DNA of 64,000 nt from Heliocidaris erythrogramma (taxonomy: Eukaryota; Echinodermata; Echinoidea; Camarodonta; Echinometridae), in assembly GCA_025617745.1 (NCBI GenBank), contig CM046870.1, positions 29,903,927 through 29,967,926 on the forward strand, read 5' to 3'. Shown here piece after piece: positions 3,477-63,953 of the stretch. Numbering within the stretch: the first letter of the stretch is position 1; each line of letters starts with the position of its first letter. The notes under the pieces were generated by a model that did not search any database, was not told the DNA's origin, and saw nothing but the letters and a program-made list of their open reading frames with translations. A program made the translations under genes and the position numbers.

Positions 3477-5459
3477 AATGTTTACTCTTTGGATTTTTTT
3501 TTAAAGTAATAAGTTTGTATGACCTGTCTTTTATTATGTGTTTTACATAAATTCAATTGATTTGAATTGAATACATGTAGACTTGATATCATATGTGCCA
3601 AACGACGGAAAGATGGTAAATTGCCCAATGCATACTTATTATGGTTATACGTTGAATTGTTCTCATTCATAACCATATACCTCATTTATTTCTGTATGCA
3701 TTCAAGACTGTTTCTTGGGTTGTGTACTAAATCAGAAAGCCATCTCTTTCGTACACCTTTTAAGATTCTGCATAGGTAAAGATCTTAAATTGTTTAGATT
3801 CTCAATAATTTTCAGTTTTTCCTCTTACTGGTAGGTAGGTTTAAAGAAGAATTCATTGGAAGCGGGTTACCTGACCTATTTACATGTAAATCGTTTTTGT
3901 GAAATACTTTACCCAAAACTTGTTACACGTCACTTGTTAAAAATCACTACAACCACTTCTTCGTACATGTTTTTGACTTCCAGGAAATATACATTTAATG
4001 TCATCATATCATCTAAGTCCTGAAAAAGATCTACATCCCTTTGGGAAATTATAGTAGTGATATGAGATTTTCCTATTTTCTTAGGAAATAGCTTTATGGA
4101 TATGGGGAGACACTGCCAAAAGAAATCAAATTAAGACAGTGTTTACATTAGATAATATGATCACACTGTTTTTAATCGGTAAATGTGACCCCTGGGAATC
4201 TTAAGATACGGGATTCAGTTTTATTCAGTGCCTTAAGAGTATGATTGAATATTCCTGTCTAGGATGAATTACAGGTGAGTGAACAGTCATACCGAAGACT
4301 GTCCGATACAGTGCAGATTTGTTTCCATTACAAATAGTACAAAAATACAGGAAGCATGCCTAAAACTAGAATGTCTATAGGCAATTCATAAAGTGACTGA
4401 AATGCTGCCGACGGGGCCTGAATTGTTCGTACATCATGTCTACTTCCAAAATATGCTGTCCTTCTCATTTTTCCTGTCTGAATAAAATGCTCTCAACGGG
4501 GACTGGAAAACGTCATGTTTAAAATCGCCTTTTAAAATATAATTGCCGTTCGGGCATTGAACCTTACACGACAAAAATGTAGACAAACAGCTATGGTCTA
4601 TTTCCCCCTCAATCGTTATTTAACACGTCTCACAGGGGCCAAAGATTGAAAAAACGTTTCAGGTGGGTAGAATGAAATCCCGCTTATACTTCGTCTCATG
4701 CCCCCGTGACCTAACGATTCTGTTTCTTTTTTCATGTCGCAGGTTTCTCCCCGTTACACGATCCACGTCTGATCGTCGAAGTAGCGAGCCGAGGCTTGAG
4801 GGGTAAAAGTGCGACCAAAAGTAAACGACGTGGAAAAAATAAAACAGAGAGCGGAGGTTTGGAGCAAAGGTTTGCAATCAGTGAACGCAGTGCTACCCCG
4901 ATTGGCTATCGACTGATATACGATGAGAGTTAGCGTGCATAGATCGCCGCTTCTGGCTCCATGGCTTATTGATTAAGACCTAACACCGCTTCAACAAGCC
5001 CATGTGAGGAAAACGTCTGGTGCACAACAACTAGCTTTCCATAACTACTCTTGCTCGTCCACCGCCATTGGGCAGAAAAGTACGTGCACGATATCCAATA
5101 GGATGCAGCCCGAGAGAGCATGCGCTGTGGATTGTGCTCGGGAGCTGAAGGCACGCATTCCCATTCTTGCCGTTAAATGAAGTAGTGATATGATATAAGC
5201 GCGTGAAACGTGACTGGGTTGAATCAATACAGCAACAAACACACGTGCTGGAAGTGTTTCTCCTCGCCTTTCGGAAGGCAAGTTTCAACTGCACTTAAAA
5301 TACATGTGTGATTTCACGGCTATGCTTTGATATACCTCCAAGGAATGAACATGTCATCAGGTCTTACGCAAACACTGAACCGAACAGGTACGACACTCAT
5401 AGCTTTGTTACATTGCCACCTTAGAGATATGCCACTGGAGTAGGAGTCAATTTCTCACC
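3477..5459. other. Gene-free stretch upstream of the receptor gene
   Basis: No other gene is supported. The last several hundred bases must hold the 5' UTR and promoter of the receptor at 5460, unless an upstream non-coding exon exists. I see no clear TATA or initiator element to assign. Overlapping minus-strand ORFs at 4966-5294 have no recognisable domain. Confidence 0.4.
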
Positions 5460-6599
5460 ATGGAAGCAAGTACTTTTGAAACGGAGACATACTACCCCGA
5501 TAATAACGGGACTGAAATGTTGGAAGAGGAACCTAAAGTGGTCTTCTGGGCTTGGTTCCAGATGATGTGCCTTGTTCTTGCCATTGTGGGATTCCTCGGT
5601 AATTTGCTGGTCGTTTTGGTGATCATACGTCAGCAACGACGTCGAACGAGCACGGATAAACTCATTCTCGCCCTCGCCGTGGCCGACCTGCTCACCTCAA
5701 TCTTCATCATCCCCATTCCTACCCCGACGAGCCTTCCATACGGTGTACTGGGGGAACTCTACTGTAAAGTCATCTATTCTTCTGTGTGCATGTGGATATC
5801 GATTATGGCTTCGGTTTTTACGTTGATCATGATATCAGGGGAACGTTATGTTGCCGTGTGTTACCCTTTTCGCTACCAGCGGTTGTTTGCTGGCTACCGA
5901 CCCGATGTCATACTTTGTGTCATCTGGATCATCTCCTTTATAATAAACACCAATAGTTTCTATGTATCGTTCGTCGATACACCAGGTGTAAATTGCACCG
6001 TTAAGTTTCCAACACCGGAGTTCCAGATGTTCTTTGGTATCGTACTTTTTTTGGTTGAGTATCTAATTCCTGTAATCATCATGCTGATTGCGAATGTATA
6101 CACAATCCGCGCCTTAAACCATCAAGCCAGATCATTAGTGGCCAAAAGGGATAAGAGATCGGGGCCTGCATTAAAGCTACTACAAGCGCGGAGAAAAGTC
6201 ATCGAAATGCTCTTCATCGTAGTCATAATATTTGTTATTTGTTGGACACCTGATCAAATAGGATATCTTGCCTTCAATATTGGGTTGGTAGAGGTAGATT
6301 TTCTTTACAGCCCCGTCTACCGATCATTTGTTGCGCTTGCATTCTGTAACTCCTGTGCGAATCCCTTTATTTACGCAGCACGGAATCCAAATTTCAGGCG
6401 AGCTCTTAAGGAATTAGTTATGTTTTCACCTATTGGCGGATCAATTTTTAACCAAGGAGGTCCTGGATTCACCGACAGGTTTGAGCTAAGTCAAACACAG
6501 GGCACTATCCGGGGAGTCCTGGCGAATGGTCGCAAACCATCTTTACAGGGTTGTCTGGATGTGCCAGAAACATCACAAAAGACAGCATCAACAATGTGA
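5460..6599 (+). CDS. Class A (rhodopsin-like) GPCR, orphan peptide-receptor-like
   Basis: This is a 379-residue seven-transmembrane receptor in a single exon. It would sit in the plasma membrane and signal through heterotrimeric G proteins. Seen in the sequence: an N-glycosylation sequon at N16-G-T in the extracellular N-terminus; TM1 about 28-57 with GN48; TM2 about 66-90 with LALAVAD76; Cys102 at the top of TM3 and Cys179 in loop 2 for the conserved disulfide; E128-R129-Y130 at the end of TM3; W156 in TM4; P204 in TM5; C261-W-T-P264 in TM6; N301-P-F-I-Y305 in TM7; then an amphipathic helix 8 (NFRRALKEL). Length is normal and no motif is missing. The start TCACCATGG is an excellent Kozak context. 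The loop pattern resembles neuropeptide-type receptors, but I cannot name the ligand. Intronless class A receptors are common in echinoderm lineage expansions (family knowledge). It has no functional neighbours here. Confidence 0.93.
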   Translation: MEASTFETETYYPDNNGTEMLEEEPKVVFWAWFQMMCLVLAIVGFLGNLLVVLVIIRQQRRRTSTDKLILALAVADLLTSIFIIPIPTPTSLPYGVLGELYCKVIYSSVCMWISIMASVFTLIMISGERYVAVCYPFRYQRLFAGYRPDVILCVIWIISFIINTNSFYVSFVDTPGVNCTVKFPTPEFQMFFGIVLFLVEYLIPVIIMLIANVYTIRALNHQARSLVAKRDKRSGPALKLLQARRKVIEMLFIVVIIFVICWTPDQIGYLAFNIGLVEVDFLYSPVYRSFVALAFCNSCANPFIYAARNPNFRRALKELVMFSPIGGSIFNQGGPGFTDRFELSQTQGTIRGVLANGRKPSLQGCLDVPETSQKTASTM

Positions 6600-14029: not shown

Positions 14030-15050
14030 GAATTTTGATGCGGGTTTGTGGTTGAGTTTCATTGTATGTATGCTTGGTTTATGAGAATTGTCAGGAAAAC
14101 AAGTCACACAATGCGCTTTCGGTGAATGTGTTGTAAATACTTTGAGGAATGTGTGTATGTATAATGTTGTGTGTTGGGAGGAAACATTTTACACGCTCAA
14201 ATTAGTAACTAATGTTATGACTGTTCTGTTGAGTTCATGCGGAAATGTTAATACGTAAATGTGTGTTTCTTGTCAAGGGGGAGTGTTCTGATGAGTGCGT
14301 GCTGGAATCCAAGTCGAGTTTGTTTGATTGTGAGTTTGTAAATGGATGTTTAATTTGTTTGCACTGCGAGGATAATATTTGACACAATGGAATTAGAAAC
14401 CGAAATTCTGTGATTGTGATAATTCTGATGAGTTTTCTGGGGAGCGTTTCATCAAGCGTTTTGTCAGTGATTTTTACCTACAAATTTGCTCTCAGCCAAT
14501 CGGATGCAAGTATTTCAGTAGCTCATAACAGTTGTCGGTAAAAATCACTGACAAAACACTTGATGAAACGCTCCCCTGGTGATGGGTCTGGTGGGTGTAT
14601 GCAGTCGTGTGAATGTGTACATGCATGTTTCATGTGCATTGGGTAGAAAGACTTTTTACCCAGTGAAATTACTAACTGAATTTCTCTAGCAGGTGAGTGG
14701 TTTGGAGAGTATATGTGGTAATGTAAGAGAGAAAATGCATGTTTTATGTGGACTGCGAGGGCTTTTTTTTTTTGCTCAAAAGTCTGAAATAGGGGGAGGT
14801 TTTTTGGTGAGTATATGCGGTAATGTAAATGTGCGTTCCGAAGAAAGATTCTAATCAAAGGAATAGGTATCTCGAGTGTTCTGGTGAATTGATGGCGGAA
14901 TATTAATGTGTGAGTGCATGCTTGACATGGACTGTGAGGAAATACTTTGCACAATGAAATGAGCGTCTCAAATTCTGTAATAGAAGAGTGTTCTGGTGAG
15001 TTTATGATGGGATGTGAGGGTGTATGTATGCTTCATTTAGGTCCATTACG
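14030..15050. repeat. Degenerate tandem array, units roughly 65-140 bp
   Basis: Repeated words occur in the same order: TTCTG(G/A)TGAG, then GTATATGCGG-like, AATGT, GCATGCTT/GCATGTTT, GGACTGCGAGG, CACAATG, AATTCTGTAA. Unit starts are visible near 14221, 14284, 14421, 14690, 14805, 14877 and 14988. Spacing is irregular, which suggests an old array with internal deletions. It is interrupted by the MITE at 14438-14576. Confidence 0.5.
14438..14576. repeat. Foldback MITE, family A (GGGGAGCGTTTCATC ends), copy 1
   Basis: Complementary arms begin GGGGAGCGTTTCATCAAGCG and end with its complement CTTGATGAAACGCTCCCC. They continue inwards as GTCAGTGATTTTTACC. The loop contains AGCCAATCGGATGC. Three more copies lie at 22076-22218, 57943-58085 and 60844-60980. 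It is inserted within the tandem array. Confidence 0.85.
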
Positions 15051-19265: not shown

Positions 19266-20224
19266 TTAAAGGAGAATTATCCCCAGGCTTTTAAATGTAA
19301 ATAGGGTCATAGTGAATAAAATAACATTTAATTTGATATAAAAATCACCGTTTTAGACCAACTGATGCCGTTGTAAGAGCAGAAAATAGAGACCACTTTT
19401 TACGATGATTACAACGTCGTCTACTCCTACTGGCGGCGTCCATTTTCTCTAAATTTCCCATAAAACCTTGCGCGTGATGACGTAGGGGATGGAGAACTCA
19501 CTAGCTAGTAGCTAGCTTGCATGAAGCGCGCGCTGCATATACACACGGTAAACATGGTGTATTGTCAAGCGTTCGGCTGTTGTAACTGTTCCAAGAAAAC
19601 GATAGGGAAATCATTCCATCGGTTCCCAGACCCGCAGAAATGTCAGCAATTGTTCAAGCGTTGGGTGACCATATTGAACGTGGAAAAATTCCAAGGAAAA
19701 GACTTCAAACTTGATCGGAAAAATGATGTGATCTGCAGTGATCATTTCACGGAGGCCGATTATCACGTAGATCTGCGGGCTAAGCTTATGCCCGGGCGAA
19801 TCGTATAATCAAGCTAGTGTGTCCTGGAACACGTTTTACTTACGATGATTATTTTACTCTAATAGATGTTTTTCAAATGTGACAGTTACGTAGATAATAT
19901 AAATTGATTTATTTAATTTAAACTCTTGCGTAATTTATGTTATTATTAATAATAATAAACTCTTTTTAAAATAATGTTGGTGAACTATTGCGAGCCAATT
20001 ACAATGCGCTACGGCCAACTCCATGCCCTACGTCACACAGCTCGATCGCACCGGGAACATGGCGACGCTGCTTTACTCTCGAGAACAATAAAAATCGGAG
20101 GATTCAATCGACAATTCCCATCCTCTCGATTCTCGAATATACAATGTTTTTACTTTATCAGAAACTGTTTAGAATTCTGTTTTAGGTCATTGATAAAAGT
20201 CTCGTGGGGATAATTCTCCTTTAA
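19266..20224. mobile_element. TTAA-flanked DNA transposon carrying a THAP domain (Kolobok-like)
   Basis: TTAA at 19266-19269 and 20221-20224 flank a 951-bp unit. It begins AGGAGAATTATCCCCA and ends with the exact inverse complement TGGGGATAATTCTCCT. More internal blocks are also inverted: GATGACGTAGGGGATGGAG near 19476 pairs with CTCCATGCCCTACGTCAC near 20019, and GCGGCGTCCATTTTCTC pairs imperfectly with GGGAACATGGCGACGC. This implies long imperfect arms surrounding the THAP ORF. Kolobok elements are known for TTAA target sites and THAP-containing transposases. This unit is too short for a full transposase, so it is probably a non-autonomous derivative that kept the DNA-binding domain. The Kolobok name is inference. 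Confidence 0.75.
19554..19808 (+). CDS. THAP-domain (C2CH zinc finger) protein, truncated
   Basis: The ORF runs from an upstream ATG at 19521, but the ATG at 19554 gives the classic THAP start, M-V-Y-C-x4-C. From 19554 it is 84 residues. It shows the C2CH zinc ligands (first Cys at 4, second in FGC, late Cys and His in the CSDHF block), the FHRFP block, the conserved Trp (KRWV), the CSDHF block and Tyr after it. The usual AVPTIF-like end is replaced by LMPGRIV and a stop, so the domain is nearly complete but the C-terminal signature is missing and no catalytic part follows. THAP domains bind DNA, and in P- and Kolobok-type transposases they bind the element's ends. It lies between the inverted arms of the transposon. 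The alternative is that it is a first exon whose splice site lies near its end. Confidence 0.7.
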   Translation: MVYCQAFGCCNCSKKTIGKSFHRFPDPQKCQQLFKRWVTILNVEKFQGKDFKLDRKNDVICSDHFTEADYHVDLRAKLMPGRIV

Positions 20225-22075: not shown

Positions 22076-22218
22076 CTGGGGAGCGTTTCATCAAGTGTCT
22101 TGTCAGTGATTTTTACTGACGAATTTGCTCTCAGCCAATCAGATGCAAGGATTTCAGTAGCTTATAGCAGTTGTCGATAAAAATCACTGACAAAACGCTT
22201 GATGAAACGCTCCCCTGG
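22076..22218. repeat. Foldback MITE, family A, copy 2
   Basis: Same ends and core as 14438-14576: it starts CTGGGGAGCGTTTCATC and ends GATGAAACGCTCCCCTGG. The centre carries AGCCAATCAGATGCAAGG and TTTCAGTAGCTTATA. It is well preserved, with no coding content. Confidence 0.88.
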
Positions 22219-23427
22219 TTTCAGTTTACCACGTTACATATATTGCAATGAAGCTTCCCTTCTCTGCAGGAATCATTGAACTTCTGATATGCAGACACTG
22301 CACTGTGACACATCTTTAAAACTAACTTTCTTGCTTAAAATGAAATTGCTTCCGTGAACAAGATATTTGATACATCTAGCAGTAATTATAGAAGCCGTGC
22401 TTTCTCCTGGTATGTCAAGATTCAATACAAAACAAAATGTATTGTTTCAAATCCAAAAGTCTCAGTACTTCATATTTCACATAAAAGAACAATCAATGTC
22501 CATTTTTATAAGATTACCTTTCATGGGTCACGTCTAATTCTGGCAGCATATATTGTAAAAGTTTCTCCTCCAACTTAACATTTATGAAATTTCAGTAGCT
22601 GACTTGCAGAAAACCCTTTTTTTAAACTCTCAGTGCATCATATTAAGAAACTAGTTGGAACTGTCAATTACTTGGTGTTCAGTGATTTGAAATAGAATAT
22701 CCTTTATCTTGTAAACAGAACGCATCGATTTATGAAGTTTTTACAAGATTTTTCAAAGTAGCGGTATGGGATGGGGGAGGGGATACCCCAAATTAAACGT
22801 ATTGAAAATATAGTTGTGGGGGAGGGGCTTGACTGGATACAGCTATTTTCGATCCAATATTTGCAATGGTGTAAGGTTTTGTGACAGTAAATCATGAACA
22901 ATTCAGGTATCTATATTTGGAGACTATTCCCCTCTAGCTCCTCTTTGTCAACAAATGATATAAGCATTCTACACTTCACATGTTGAAGACATTGTATAGC
23001 AAGGCATAATTTGCAAGAGCTATATCATTCGTTTGTGAGGAAATTTTACAGGATTTATTAAGAGAAAGTCGAATATGCTTATGATCAGGAATTAAATATA
23101 CAATTTAATTTCATGATTTGTTTAATAGCATTTCATTTTATATGGTTTACGAGACATCAAAGTTGCACTATCATATCTACTCACCAGTTTTTTTAATAAA
23201 AGGTGTGAGAGTTGTTTATGTGGTTTTGTGAATTAGACATACGCGAAAATGTATCTTTATGGCTTTTTTTATTCTAGGATTGGCGTTAGCGGTACTCTTT
23301 ATCTTTTGAAATTGCAGACAGGTCAAAAGGTTTATGGAAAGCAAGACTTTATGTAAGATACATGTAAAATCCCTTTTAATTTTTTAAAACATTAAGTTTG
23401 TATCATGGTTTTATCAATGCATAGATA
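22219..23427. other. Gene-free stretch
   Basis: No recognisable gene or repeat. Short ORFs at 22354-22578 (+) and 22704-22901 (-) carry no motifs. Confidence 0.4.
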
Positions 23428-57942: not shown

Positions 57943-58085
57943 CTGGGGAGCGTTTCATCAAGCGTATTTTGTCAGTGATTTTTACCGACAACTGTTATAA
58001 GCTATTGAAATCCTTGCATCTGATTGATTGAGAGCAAATTTGTCAGTAAAAATCACTGACAAAACGCTTGATGAAACGCTACCCT
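57943..58085. repeat. Foldback MITE, family A, copy 3
   Basis: It starts CTGGGGAGCGTTTCATCAAG and ends CTTGATGAAACGCTACCCTG. The core has TTATAAGCTATTGAAATCC and GCATCTGATTGATTGAGAGC, so the CCAAT word of the other copies has mutated here. Confidence 0.87.
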
Positions 58086-58124
58086 GAATTCTCAAACTGC
58101 CAAATACTTATACAGTTAACATCC

Positions 58125-58784: not shown

Positions 58785-59302
58785 CAGAGTATGGGGGGGG
58801 GGGGGGAGTACTTGTTTTTCCGAAGGTTCGTAATTCCGAAACACAAATTTCCCATAGCGGGGAGTTCAGAATTCTGAAAATGAAATAGGGTTCATAATTC
58901 TGAATATTTGATTCATATCTCCAAAGATTTGTTATTCCGAAGGTTTGTAATTCCGAAAATGAAATAGGATCCATAGCTCTGAAGGTTTGTAATTTTGAAA
59001 ATGAAATAGGGTTCGTAATTCCGAAAATGATAAAGGGTTCACTATAATTCCGAAATCGAAATAGGGTTCATAATTCCGAAAATGCGATAAAGTCCTCCAT
59101 AACTTTTCGGAATCACGAACCTTCGGAAATATGAACCCTTTTTCATTATCGGAATTACGAACCCTATTTTATTTTCAGAATTATGAACCCTATTTCATTT
59201 TCGGAATTATGAACCCTGTTTCATTTTCGGAATTATGAACCTTCGGAATTACGAACCGTCGGAATTATGAACCTTCGGAAAAACGACATGTAACCAGAGT
59301 AT
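58785..59302. mobile_element. Palindromic minisatellite element with 8-bp target duplication
   Basis: CAGAGTAT occurs at 58785-58792 and again at 59295-59302, on either side of the unit. Inside, the left half repeats a roughly 27-bp unit (TTCGTAATTCCGAAAATGAA, then ATAGGG) about eight times. From about 59100 the right half repeats its inverse complement (TTCATTTTCGGAATTATGAA, then CCCTAT). The outermost ends pair (TTTTTCCGAAGG at 58815, CCTTCGGAAAAA at 59272). No ORF. Long tandem-repeat arms with an 8-bp duplication resemble Foldback-type or hAT-related non-autonomous transposons. The exact class is inference. Confidence 0.8.
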
Positions 59303-59908: not shown

Positions 59909-60562
59909 TTAAAGGACAAGTAACCCCACGTGATATTCTAGATGCACCTATTGTCTGCTACGTCTTTCCATGGAGGCTGCCATTTTGTGCATGACACGGA
60001 TCATTAGGTACCATATGCATTGATAATAGCCTACCTTTACAACAGATACGTCGCTTTGTTCTGATTGTATTACGATTGTTATTGGCCATGGGCCTAGATA
60101 ATTGACGACCCATGAGTTCTAATAGCCATCCTGTAAAGCAGATTCCTCGCTTTGTTTTGGTATTGTTACGATTGTCTCCGTCCTTGACGTCAATTCTCCG
60201 TCCTTGACGTATATTTTTTATGAAGTATATTTTTTATGAACAAATTAAGACCTTTTAAAAAATATATAAAACTAAACTTACATTTCAGAATATGTGACTT
60301 TATCTAATATATATTTGTCCTCTAAAAATCAATTACAAGTTAACGATGAAGGAAATTTTACTTGGGATGAAAAATATGTTCGTGTACACATAAAGTAATG
60401 GCAGCCCCCTTATTATTGCTAGCAGACGATAACTTGGCTGGAAAATAGTGATTTATATCTATATCCTGTGTTTTTACATGAAATTGCATGTATCAAATAA
60501 GAGGCATATACTACACCATTCAAAATAAGCTAATTCATACGCTGAGGTTAATTTCCCTTTAA
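59909..60562. mobile_element. TTAA-type MITE (AGGACAAG ends), 646 bp
   Basis: TTAA at 59909-59912 and 60559-60562 flank a unit starting AGGACAAGTAACCCCA and ending TGAGGTTAATTTCCCT. The ends match at 12 of 16 positions after inversion. Inside there are short tandem duplications (CTCCGTCCTTGACGT twice at about 60175-60211, TATATTTTTTATGAA twice at about 60211-60240). No ORF of note. Confidence 0.6.
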
Positions 60563-60843
60563 GCAGAAAGCCTGCGTTGGGTACGTGTGAATGGTTTATA
60601 CGATTCATTAAACACACAGAGGCCAAACTGTGCAGACTCTACACAGGTTGCGCTAATCCAGTTTCTTCCCAACACAATAACCTTTCATTGCCACCAGTGC
60701 CAACTGGCATTATCGCTCGTTTGCCAAGTGTGCCGATCGGCACAAAATAGGCTCAAATTAACAGGACCGCCTAAAGCAACACAAAAGTTTGCGAAGGAAC
60801 CCATTTCTGCTCTTGATTAGCCTCATGGCAGTCCTTCTAACAC

Positions 60844-60980
60844 CTGGTGAGCGTTTCATCAAGCGTTTTGTCAGTGATTTTTACCGACAACTGTTATAAG
60901 CTACTGAAATCTTTGCATATGATTGGCTAAGAGCAAATTAGCATAAAATCACTGACAGAACGCTTGATGTAAGGTCCCCT
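60844..60980. repeat. Foldback MITE, family A, copy 4 (diverged right end)
   Basis: It starts CTGGTGAGCGTTTCATCAAG and ends GCTTGATGTAAGGTCCCCTG; the right arm has mutated away from the usual GAAACGCTCCCC. The core GCATATGATTGGCTAAGAGC is present. Confidence 0.82.
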
Positions 60981-61051
60981 GTATACGTTAATTTAGACTG
61001 GAGACATTTAAATCCACTCGAAACATTTTGTGAAAATATTCCATGACAAAG

Positions 61052-61084: not shown

Positions 61085-61770
61085 ATTCATATATATGTAT
61101 AGATATACATCATGGTAAATACATGTAAGCCCGGCGCACACTGTACGATCCGACTGCGATGCGACTGACCAGAGAGTCGACATGTTGAATCTTCTGCGAT
61201 GAGTCGTGGGATTTTAATCTTTTGGCCAATCAGAATCGTGCAAAATGATGACGTCATCGTCAATTTGCTTGAGATGATCACCAAAACCAGGGAAAAGCTC
61301 ATCGCGCAAAAAAGCACAACTCGCTCCCACAACTCTGGCGGGCTGAAACCTGCGTACCGTATAGACCGTGCTTGAATTGCTGAAGCTCTGAGCAGTGGAG
61401 GTCGAGGACAATGTCTCCTCTTACCGTATAAGTGGACGGTCTGGACAAAATAGACTAGTTAGAAAATGATGAGCAAGAGAAACAATATTAGTCAGTATTC
61501 ATTCCTAATTCCAAAATTCCAAATAATAATAATAATCCACTCCAAATTTTATTAACCGAAATGGAAATTCTTTTTGCCCAATTGATCCTGGCAACAGCCA
61601 GCCTGTTCCAGGAAAAGACTTCGAGGAGTGTCAAATTCAAAGTCAAAGACAAGACCAGTCCCAGCTATCCAGATCGAGGTAGGCAACAATAATTTATTTA
61701 CAGATCTAACAAAATGTTAGCTCTGCAAAGTAATTGTTAAAACTGAAGTAATAAAAGTGAAGAACTTAAT

Positions 61771-61922
61771 TCTTCTTCTTCTTCTCCTCGATCCTCCTCC
61801 TCGATCCTCCTCCTCCTCCTTCTTCTTCTTCTTCCTCTTCCTCTTCTCTTTCTTCTTCTTTTTCTGTTCCTCCTCCTCCTTTCGAGTTTTGCCTTCTTCT
61901 CAGACTCTTCCTCCTCCTTTCT

Positions 61923-61954
<32 letters not shown>

Positions 61955-61985
61955 CAATTCTTCTTTTTCTCCTTCTTATTCTTGG
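61771..61985. repeat. CTT/CTC polypyrimidine block
   Basis: About 215 bp of almost pure pyrimidine on the plus strand. The apparent Arg/Glu-rich ORF on the minus strand and the Ser/Phe-rich ORF on the plus strand are translations of the repeat. Mirror symmetry could allow triplex (H-DNA) structure. Confidence 0.95.
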
Positions 61986-62689
61986 ATCTATGCTCGAGAG
62001 TCTACTCTGCATGGAGTCTAACATTTAGATCTTGATCCAGATCTAACTCGGTTTAGACCTAGATCACTAGTGTACCCAATGCCAATGGGGGGGGGGGGGG
62101 GGGGCAAAGAGTCAGACTGCCCCCGACAACTTTTTAGCCGAACAAAAATATCAGAAAGACAAGTACAGATTTCTCATCAACATTGCTACATGCATTTTAA
62201 GTACTTCCAGAGCAGATAAAATAACAGGAGAGGTATGAAGGAAATTAGAATGAAATTGCTAGATAAAGATGGTTTCAGGAGAAAGAAAATTAATGAGTCC
62301 GAATATGTGCCAAGAATATAGTTGTAAATGAATGTTTCCATACAAATGATTTGGAGTTGATTATTGACTTGGAATGGAAGGGAACTTGATTCATAGAGAA
62401 GTTGAAAAAGGGGATTGAGAGGAAGGAAGAAAAGGAGAAAGAGAGAGAGAGACAGGGAGATGAATTATGGATCAACATTTAAAGATGATCTCGAAAAAAA
62501 TTTTGAGTGAGAAAGAGAGGGGGAGGGGGACTGAATCGCGTATAACCATTTTTTTAAGTCTAGAACCCCCTCCCCCTTTTCATTCCTTCATATATACCAC
62601 CCTATATCTTCCTACGTCGAATCAATTTCTCTCTTTGTCCTCAGTGTCTCTCACTCTATGAATCTTATTCTTATTCCAGTCTTTCCTCG

Positions 62690-62960
62690 CTTTCTCACCC
62701 CCTCTCTCTCTCTCTCTTTATGCTCTTGCTTCTTTTCTTTCTCCTTCCTTTTAACTCCTCTCATTTTTACTCTTCTTACTCTTCTCACATTCTTTCTATC
62801 TCACTCAAGAATCCCCCTTTTTTCCTTTTTTTTTTTTTTTTTTTTTTTTTTTGGGGGGGGGGGGGTCTTTCCTTCTTTCTTTCCTTTGCCGTTCTTCTTT
62901 CTTTCCATATCGGCTCAATGCTACTTTGCTACAATATGGGACCCGCCTGCATCTTTCCCA

Positions 62961-62991
<31 letters not shown>

Positions 62992-63230
62992 CTGCTCTAC
63001 TTTCCGTGTCTCACTTTTACCCTATTTCTCTCTTTTCATTTCCACCTTCTTTTCACCTCTTCTGTTTCTTGCCCACTCTTTCTCATTCTCTTTATTTTAC
63101 CCCATCTTTCTAATTTCCCCCTTAATAACTCTACAGCCAACCCCCTCTCTGTCTGTCTCTCTCTCTCTCTCTCACACACTCTTTGTCTTTCATTCTCTCT
63201 TAATCTGTTATTCTTTACTTCTCTCCTTCC
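62690..63230. repeat. CT-rich tract with T and G runs
   Basis: About 540 bp strongly biased to pyrimidine, including (CT)n at about 62971-62991 and 63156-63173, a T run at 62829-62852 and a G run to 62865. Three overlapping long ORFs (62658-63387) arise only because the tract lacks stop codons. Confidence 0.93.
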
Positions 63231-63666
63231 CCTTGCCCTTGATCGAAGTCCATCCCCCAGCAGACATGTCGGCAACCTCTTTCTCATATACCCTCGTCCT
63301 CATCTTCTAGTTCTCATTCCAACCCCACTTTCTCTCAGGGCTGGGTCTTGTGACTATTTTCAAAAAAGAATAAGCTATTTTGTGTAAACGATGCATGTAC
63401 CCTTTTCCCGATTGTAAAACAGGACAATTTGTTTTGTAAATCAATGTTATTTTCAGACAAGATACTTCGTCTTCTTAATATAATATACAGGACATGATGA
63501 AAATGGTTACTCCGATGCAAAATACGCAAGCGCTGCAAAATAATCGGATATAGGTTTTAGTGAAATCGTAAAAATCAGTCTGCGATGTCCTGCGACTGCG
63601 ATCGGATTGGGCTCACAGTCGCAGAGCGATCGGATCGCAGTCGGATCGCGCAGTGTGCGCCGGGCT

Positions 63667-63953
63667 TATGAATGGATCGTCAAAGCTTTCATCTAAAGAT
63701 TGATGGAGACGTCCAACGAAAAAAATAAACAATATTAAAATATGGAATGATGCAAATTTACTAAGTGAGAAAAAAAACATAATATTAGAGAGAGACATAG
63801 AGAGAGGGGGATGAAGTGTAAAGAAGAGAGTTGAGAAAAGAAAAAGTAGCTACATCATGAATGTTACGTAAAGATAATACCAATTCAAGATCCTGGCATT
63901 AACAATGGTTCGTTAATTTAAACCATTAGGTAATTTGTGACTAAGGGAATATT
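63667..63953. other. Gene-free stretch
   Basis: Under 300 bp of AT-rich sequence with a GA-rich patch near 63787-63845. No gene. Confidence 0.5.

What the first reader, a model, noticed from the sequence alone, without database searches (positions are those of the whole stretch)
19266..20224. Compact TTAA transposon whose only visible ORF is a THAP DNA-binding domain
A 951-bp unit has exact 16-bp inverted ends, TTAA on both sides and longer imperfect inverted arms. It encloses an ORF with the THAP zinc ligands, the HRFP block and the conserved Trp but no catalytic domain. TTAA plus THAP fits Kolobok. A non-autonomous element that keeps only the end-binding domain could encode a trans-acting repressor of its autonomous relatives, like truncated P-element repressors. 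Repressor function is inference.
Basis: partly seen in the sequence, partly recalled or inferred. Interest (0 to 1): 0.78.

Follow-up and report, generated by a model that had tools for sequence, protein, structure and literature searches.

The report
Young non-autonomous Kolobok-type THAP transposon family
This is one copy of a young, high-copy jumping-DNA family that inserts at TTAA and carries a small, cut-short piece of a transposase-type DNA-binding domain, most likely a leftover rather than a working repressor.

Summary
In detail: window 19266-20224 is TTAA + 951 bp + TTAA with exact 16-bp inverted ends and an 84-aa THAP ORF. It is a real transposon. The source genome (1.06 Gb, unnamed) has 248 exact left and 266 exact right ends, reversed controls 0; two empty paralogous sites carry a single TTAA. 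TTAA, AG...CT ends and THAP fit a non-autonomous Kolobok/T2-type element. Long inverted arms are weak.

The repressor idea is not supported, though not excluded. The ORF stops where the THAP AVPTIF box should begin. Coding changes match neutral expectation. In a 46-copy census 27 keep the 84-aa frame and 36 keep the zinc-ligand core. One pair of copies at unrelated sites shares a core-breaking indel. No transposase-bearing unit with these ends was found among 83 of 248 left ends (two not resolved).

Best reading: a young internally deleted Kolobok derivative, moved in trans, with the THAP fragment as near-neutral cargo. Unexpectedly, small indels cluster in the interior and spare the arms, suggesting repair scars (post hoc). 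Transcription, binding and repression were not testable.

The parts
19266..19269 (.). left TTAA target site copy
   Evidence: TTAA at both ends in 37 of 40 best-scoring copies (window included) and 40 of 40 further copies, the latter chosen by a pattern that contains the left TTAA
19270..19285 (+). left terminal inverted repeat, 16 bp, AGGAGAATTATCCCCA
   Evidence: 248 exact left ends (TTAA + 16 bp + 2 bases) in the genome, reversed control 0
19407..19418 (.). 12 bp missing in the youngest (954-bp) subfamily, present in this copy
   Evidence: consensus 142-153; 27 of 46 census copies lack it
19478..19494 (+). left subterminal inverted repeat, TGACGTAGGGGATGGAG; possible transposase-binding or promoter site (inference)
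   Evidence: (94% complementary to 20019-20035)
19554..19808 (+). 84-aa THAP ORF, C2CH ligands C4, C9, C61, H64; stop codon 19806-19808 lies where the AVPTIF box should begin
   Evidence: identical to the family consensus ORF
19919..19920 (.). junction of a 7-bp deletion found only in this copy among the 80 compared (959 bp against the 966-bp consensus)
19954..19959 (+). AATAAA, possible polyadenylation signal downstream of the ORF (motif only)
   Evidence: consensus 696; sequence
20019..20035 (-). right subterminal inverted repeat
20205..20220 (-). right terminal inverted repeat, 16 bp
   Evidence: 266 exact right ends in the genome, reversed control 0
20221..20224 (.). right TTAA target site copy

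Best explanation
The unit is a non-autonomous DNA transposon of the Kolobok/T2-MITE type. A Kolobok transposase made elsewhere in the genome most likely binds its ends in trans, cuts it out and inserts it at TTAA, which is duplicated. It probably arose by internal deletion of a THAP-bearing Kolobok, keeping both ends and the first THAP-coding stretch. Recently it amplified into at least about 250 copies in two subfamilies (966 bp and 954 bp). The 84-aa THAP ORF is still open in many copies because the family is young, and behaves as near-neutral cargo. Without the AVPTIF box it is unlikely to be a competent DNA-binding repressor.

Shown: copies, ends, TTAA duplication, low divergence, no detected constraint on the ORF, no transposase inside. 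Inferred: Kolobok transposase as the mover, origin by internal deletion, loss of binding, repair as the source of interior indels.
For: Copies: 40 scored of 327 candidates at 98-100% identity, window included; 248 left and 266 right exact ends, reversed controls 0.

Target site: 77 of 80 compared copies have TTAA at both ends, though 40 of them were chosen by a pattern holding the left TTAA; two empty paralogous sites (L031, L046) carry one TTAA with matching flanks.

Kolobok type: TTAA plus 5'-RR/YY-3' termini (PMC9587614, section 3) and AGGRR of T2-MITE (PMC6004289, passages); termini here are AG...CT.

Youth: mean divergence from subfamily consensus 0.39% (954 type, n 27) and 1.03% (966 type, n 13, best hits left out).

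ORF as cargo: distinct variants N 31, S 13, stop 1 against expected 29.3, 11.3, 2.1 in 40 copies; copy-counted N 50, S 15, stop 2 against 61.6, 23.9, 4.8 in the 40 best hits; 84-aa frame kept in 27 of 46 census copies; L069/L083 share a core-breaking indel at unrelated sites.

No transposase: 40 of 40 fetched left-end places are 859-970 bp units. Of 83 left ends on C1-C6 paired by coordinates, 75 give 859-975 bp, one 303 bp, three 1.6-6.5 kb, and four have no exact partner. The 6.5- and 3.6-kb cases are copies interrupted by other DNA.
Against: No autonomous element or Kolobok DDE transposase with these ends was found, so superfamily assignment rests on target site, termini and a partial THAP. 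The ORF is open in many copies: 150 of 150 scored protein hits are at least 96% identical and only 3 contain a stop (the best 150 of 1099 candidates). The C2CH core with W and F is kept in 36 of 46 census copies. Two of the three pairs with shared frame-changing indels (L057/L062, L058/L067) share only a change in the tail. Across all 80 copies the N/S ratio is 0.83 of expectation, so weak constraint is not excluded. The consensus of each subfamily keeps the ORF. That the ORF is a leftover first exon was not shown by comparison with a full-length parent.
Confidence: 0.7

Rival explanations
1. The THAP peptide is a trans-acting repressor: it occupies subterminal sites of this family and of its autonomous relatives and blocks transposase assembly, as the P-element KP and 66-kDa proteins do.
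For: C2CH ligands and P/W/F residues kept; core kept in 36 of 46 census copies; many copies encode the same peptide; KP (207 aa) and the 66-kDa P protein are precedents (PMC7776569, passages); domesticated Kolobok transposases without catalytic residues were proposed as competitive suppressors in Xenopus (PMC6004289, passages).
Against: AVPTIF box missing; nothing after THAP for dimerisation; N/S near neutral expectation; indels hit the core about as often as the non-coding interior (11 events in 195 bp against 17 in 245 bp, counted by hand); a core-broken lineage spread (L069/L083); no target autonomous element found.
Confidence: 0.12
2. The THAP ORF is exon 1 of a spliced product: transcription of the element joins it to a downstream exon (in a parent element or a host gene) that supplies AVPTIF and more protein.
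For: The ORF's THAP match stops at profile position 61. By hand count 27 of the 150 scored THAP hits in this genome also end at profile 61-62. One multicopy THAP piece is an exon with splice-like borders (L091). No scored THAP hit lies in an open frame above 234 aa, so THAP genes here look split.
Against: No GTAAGT or GTGAGT on the + strand of the consensus; no Pfam match in the downstream frame scanned. The one sampled 1-62 relative (L090) ends in a stop codon, not at a clear donor. No RNA data.
Confidence: 0.13
3. A MITE captured a THAP exon of a host gene or of an unrelated THAP transposon (P-like), and the THAP domain has nothing to do with the transposase that moves it.
For: The genome has 3966 first-look THAP candidates, so THAP DNA is common material. 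Identity to the two sampled THAPs is only 28-32%.
Against: Kolobok transposases usually carry THAP (PMC6004289, passages), so derivation from the parent needs no capture.
Confidence: 0.13

Closest known systems
T2-MITE / Kolobok (XKol) elements of Xenopus (PMC6004289)
   Same: TTAA target, AGGRR termini, non-autonomous high-copy units. Some published XKol ends begin AGGAG, AGGAC or AGGGG and look similar by eye; others begin AGCGA or AGAGC. XKol transposases usually carry THAP.
   Different: Passages read do not describe a T2-MITE with a THAP-only ORF; here the unit keeps an 84-aa THAP ORF. No transposase with the same ends was found.
KP element of Drosophila P (PMC7776569)
   Same: Small internally deleted element encoding the THAP end of a transposase without the catalytic part.
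   Different: P elements have 8-bp target duplications. KP encodes 207 aa, against 84 aa here without AVPTIF. KP inhibits P transposase in published work (reference titles seen); nothing of the kind is shown here.
KolobokP and other Kolobok lineages (PMC9587614)
   Same: RR/YY termini, short inverted ends, non-autonomous derivatives; KolobokP occurs in three echinoderm classes.
   Different: KolobokP has long terminal direct repeats, and its solo repeats have TSDs of 3-5 bp; neither is seen here.
Galileo (THAP, P superfamily; PMC3688188)
   Same: THAP domain binds subterminal sites away from the tip (most proximal about 70 bp in).
   Different: Long TIRs (1.2 kb in Galileo-G) and a P-type transposase; binding was measured there and not here.

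Membership tests
Kolobok superfamily | 4-bp TTAA target site duplication | tested here: met
   37 of 40 best hits and 40 of 40 left-end-selected copies have TTAA at both ends; two empty sites with a single TTAA
Kolobok superfamily | termini 5'-RR and YY-3' (PMC9587614); AGGRR in T2-MITE (PMC6004289) | tested here: met
   AG...CT; AGGAG
Kolobok superfamily | DDE transposase with H2CH in an autonomous relative with the same ends | tested here: inconclusive
   none inside the unit; none found at 83 of 248 left ends, of which the 1.6-kb unit and one unpaired place are unresolved
THAP domain | C2CH zinc ligands and conserved P, W, F | tested here: met
   C4, C9, C61, H64; P25, W37, F65; Pfam E 1.8e-10
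THAP domain | C-terminal AVPTIF box | tested here: not met
   profile match ends at 61 of 87; ORF ends LMPGRIV-stop
MITE (non-autonomous DNA transposon) | short unit, TIR, constant target duplication, many copies, no transposase | tested here: met
piggyBac | TTAA target but termini unlike RR/YY; piggyBac transposase | tested here: not met
   termini are RR/YY; of two frames of the unit scanned, only THAP matched Pfam
P-element KP-type repressor | 8-bp target duplication; THAP plus further regions (207 aa) | tested here: not met
   4-bp TTAA, 84 aa
P-element KP-type repressor | measured repression of the transposase | not testable with these tools
   no expression or binding data held

The most novel reading that the evidence does not exclude
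Hundreds of loci encode one nearly identical 84-aa half-THAP peptide, which acts in trans on TTAA elements (repressor, decoy partner or co-activator) without the AVPTIF box. The family, and perhaps a second THAP family of this genome cut at the same profile position (L090 type), would form a layer of transposon-encoded transposon control.
Probability: 0.09. Interest if true: 0.72.

Novelty: new member of a known kind. Interest (0 to 1): 0.38.

Why it matters
It gives a clean, young test case of a KP-like derivative in a Kolobok/T2-type family: hundreds of copies, low divergence, intact and altered ORFs side by side, and empty sites. It warns that single-THAP gene counts in such genomes may include transposon ORFs like this one (inference; a sea cucumber preprint reports 24-85 THAP genes in echinoderms, 37 of 51 with a THAP domain alone in Holothuria glaberrima; PMC13228809, passages). 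If the interior clustering of indels holds up, it would be a genome-scale footprint of gap repair after excision.

Tried and rejected
Chance: rejected.

Single-copy gene or host exon: rejected as the whole story by copy number and empty sites; splicing itself not testable.

Autonomous partner: sought four ways. (1) 40 left-end places fetched, all short units. (2) Protein search, 150 scored of 1099, none with a frame above 127 aa. (3) Pfam THAP search, 150 scored of 3966, none above 234 aa. (4) Pairing of exact ends by coordinates for the first-listed 83 of 248 left ends. Two long units turned out to be copies interrupted at consensus 817 and 732. The 1.6-kb unit at C5:20508626 and the unpaired end at C4:25454712 were not read. 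The 63954 element is a different 1320-bp TTAA unit in which no THAP was found.

Long arms: whole-arm score reached by 30 of 500 shuffles.

Errors of mine, corrected. (a) The 40 left-end copies were first treated as unbiased, but the best-40 hits had been left out of them. For ORF and indel counts I used a census of 46 (those 40 plus 6 best hits) of the 47 exact left ends listed on C1-C3; C3:53953964 was not fetched. I lowered the best explanation from 0.74 to 0.70 and raised the repressor, capture and novel readings by 0.01-0.02 for that reason.

The 241-740 interior boundary was chosen after seeing the data. The 40 best hits alone show no such clustering (9 arm, 6 interior events), but they were selected for similarity to the window copy.

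Viral contigs gave no relative. Rfam and ARAGORN gave none in the window. A script failed on a file name. Paper searches listed no THAP-only TTAA element; I saw listings, and this covers open-licence PMC text only.

Full report
OBSERVATION. The window holds TTAA, 951 bp and TTAA at 19266-20224, with exact 16-bp inverted ends. It is the only 16/16 inverted pair among the window's 522 TTAA sites within 8 kb; the same-orientation control has two 16/16 direct pairs from other repeats. The 84-aa ORF 19554-19808 matches Pfam THAP (E 1.8e-10, profile 1-61 of 87) and human THAP1/THAP2 by sequence. C4, C9, C61, H64, P25, W37 and F65 are present. The ORF ends LMPGRIV-stop, where AVPTIF should begin. The other frame of the unit that was scanned, 19959-20213, has no Pfam match. 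Longer arms are weak: 30 of 500 shuffles reach the whole-arm score, although one 17-bp subterminal inverted pair stands out.

FAMILY. The window lies at C18:29903927-29967926 of an unnamed 1.06-Gb genome in 26 contigs. A DNA search scored 40 of 327 candidates, all close copies, the window's own included. Exact left ends number 248 and right ends 266; both reversed controls are 0. A protein search scored 150 of 1099 candidates, all at least 96% identical and with frames of at most 127 aa. These lists are the best hits, so older copies are under-sampled.

TRANSPOSITION. Most copies have different flanks; L033/L038 and L076/L080 share flanks and are duplicated loci. TTAA stands at both ends in 37 of 40 best hits; the other three have an altered or truncated end. 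It stands at both ends in 40 of 40 further copies, which were chosen by a pattern that contains the left TTAA. L031 sits in a repeat whose neighbouring unit is uninterrupted and has one TTAA. L046 has a similar empty paralogue.

AGE AND SUBFAMILIES. The majority consensus of the 40 best hits is 966 bp. The window copy has 5 substitutions and a 7-bp deletion, none in the ORF. A 12-bp deletion defines a 954-bp subfamily, 27 of 46 census copies. Mean divergence from consensus is 0.39% for the 954 type (n 27) and 1.03% for the 966 type (n 13, best hits left out).

THE ORF. In the 40 best hits 38 ORFs are intact, but that set is biased. In the census of 46 copies (of the 47 exact left ends listed on C1-C3) 27 keep the 84-aa frame: 20 of 27 of the 954 type and 7 of 19 of the 966 type. 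The C2CH core with W and F is kept in 36 of 46; two 84-aa copies have lost a core residue and several copies differ only in the tail. Distinct coding changes match non-coding expectation: N 31, S 13, stop 1 against 29.3, 11.3, 2.1 in 40 copies, and 46, 20, 3 against 57.2, 20.7, 4.4 in all 80. In the census, indel events fall on the core about as often as on the non-coding interior (11 in 195 bp against 17 in 245 bp; counted by hand from the lists). Three pairs of copies share a frame-changing indel at unrelated sites (L057/L062, L069/L083, L058/L067); the shared change breaks the core only in L069/L083 and alters the tail in the other two. A fourth pair, L076/L080, has the same flanks. So a copy with a broken core most likely moved, and selection on the peptide was not detected. 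Repeated mutation at one site or gene conversion could also explain a shared indel, and a weak effect is not excluded.

IS THE PEPTIDE COMPETENT? Papers link AVPTIF to THAP folding and stability (PMC6944463 and PMC7334247, passages). That single residues there are required for binding is recalled from THAP1 work; the paper was not held. Loss of binding is therefore an inference.

MOVER. Kolobok is defined by TTAA and RR/YY termini (PMC9587614, section 3) and T2-MITE by AGGRR (PMC6004289, passages); both fit. No unit with these ends and a transposase-sized interior was found. 40 of 40 fetched left-end places are 859-970 bp units. Of 83 left ends paired by coordinates, 73 give 940-975 bp, with others at 859, 927, 303, 1627, 3625 and 6458 bp, and four have no exact right end. 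The 6458 and 3625 units are copies interrupted by other DNA at consensus 817 and 732; only 561 and 381 bases of them were read. Of the four without a partner, two (L055, L086) were read and are ordinary full-length copies, and one (C5:26798077) has the usual ORF by coordinates. The 1627-bp unit and C4:25454712 were not read.

AN UNEXPECTED PATTERN. In the census, 38 distinct indel events lie in 241-740 and 5 in the arms, against 96 and 77 distinct substitutions (Fisher p 3.9e-5). Some insertions look like filler at a rejoined break. This fits interrupted repair of excision gaps, which leaves both ends intact. The boundary was set after seeing the data, and the biased best-40 set does not show the pattern (9 arm, 6 interior), so it is a lead only.

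RELATED THAP DNA. The genome has 3966 first-look THAP candidates, 150 scored. By hand count 27 of the 150 rows end at profile 61-62, 15 of them on contig C2, and 27 start at 18. One of the former (L090) is an ORF ending in a stop at about the same place as ours but only 32% identical. One of the latter (L091) is an exon with splice-like borders. This leaves open that position 62 is a common exon border.

MECHANISM AND VERDICT. Most likely an internally deleted Kolobok-type element, moved in trans, young and numerous, with a leftover THAP fragment. It works like a MITE, and it resembles KP in anatomy but fails KP's tested features. Superfamily membership is likely but not closed, because the DDE partner is missing.

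Noticed in passing
window 59909-60562: A 654-bp TTAA unit with TTAAAGG ends (12 of 16 inverted match), probably another Kolobok/T2-type element; genome search for it did not complete.
   Followed up: partly
window 63954 to end, continuing in L048: A 1320-bp TTAA unit (ends AGGAGAATTACGCTCA / AGGAGAATAAAGCCCT, 12 of 16) in which no THAP was found, running off the window.
   Followed up: partly
consensus 241-740 of the family (46 census copies): Small indels cluster in the interior and spare the arms while substitutions do not (38 against 5 events).
   Followed up: partly
L090 (C2:9415750-9416650) and 27 rows that end at profile 61-62: A second THAP ORF, repeated and 15 of 27 rows on contig C2, that also ends at THAP profile position 62; copy search did not complete.
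   Followed up: partly
L091 (C3:47688450-47689050): A multicopy exon coding THAP 18-87 with AG/GT borders, probably from another THAP transposon.
   Followed up: no
window 5403-6599 (+): Single-exon rhodopsin-type GPCR ORF, 398 aa, Pfam 7tm_1 E 3.1e-46.
   Followed up: no
window 14437-14584, 22076-22219, 57943-58086, 60842-60981: Copies of a roughly 140-bp hairpin repeat, also found beside a family copy in L011.
   Followed up: no
window about 61130-63680: By eye, long inverted ends (GCCCGGCGCACACTG...) around 2.5 kb, a likely further transposon.
   Followed up: no
window 58820-59290: Tandem 16/26-bp units (TTCGGAATTATGAACC) arranged as two opposite halves.
   Followed up: no
L020: Left end of this copy looks replaced by sequence resembling the end of a different TTAA element that lies beside it.
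   Followed up: no
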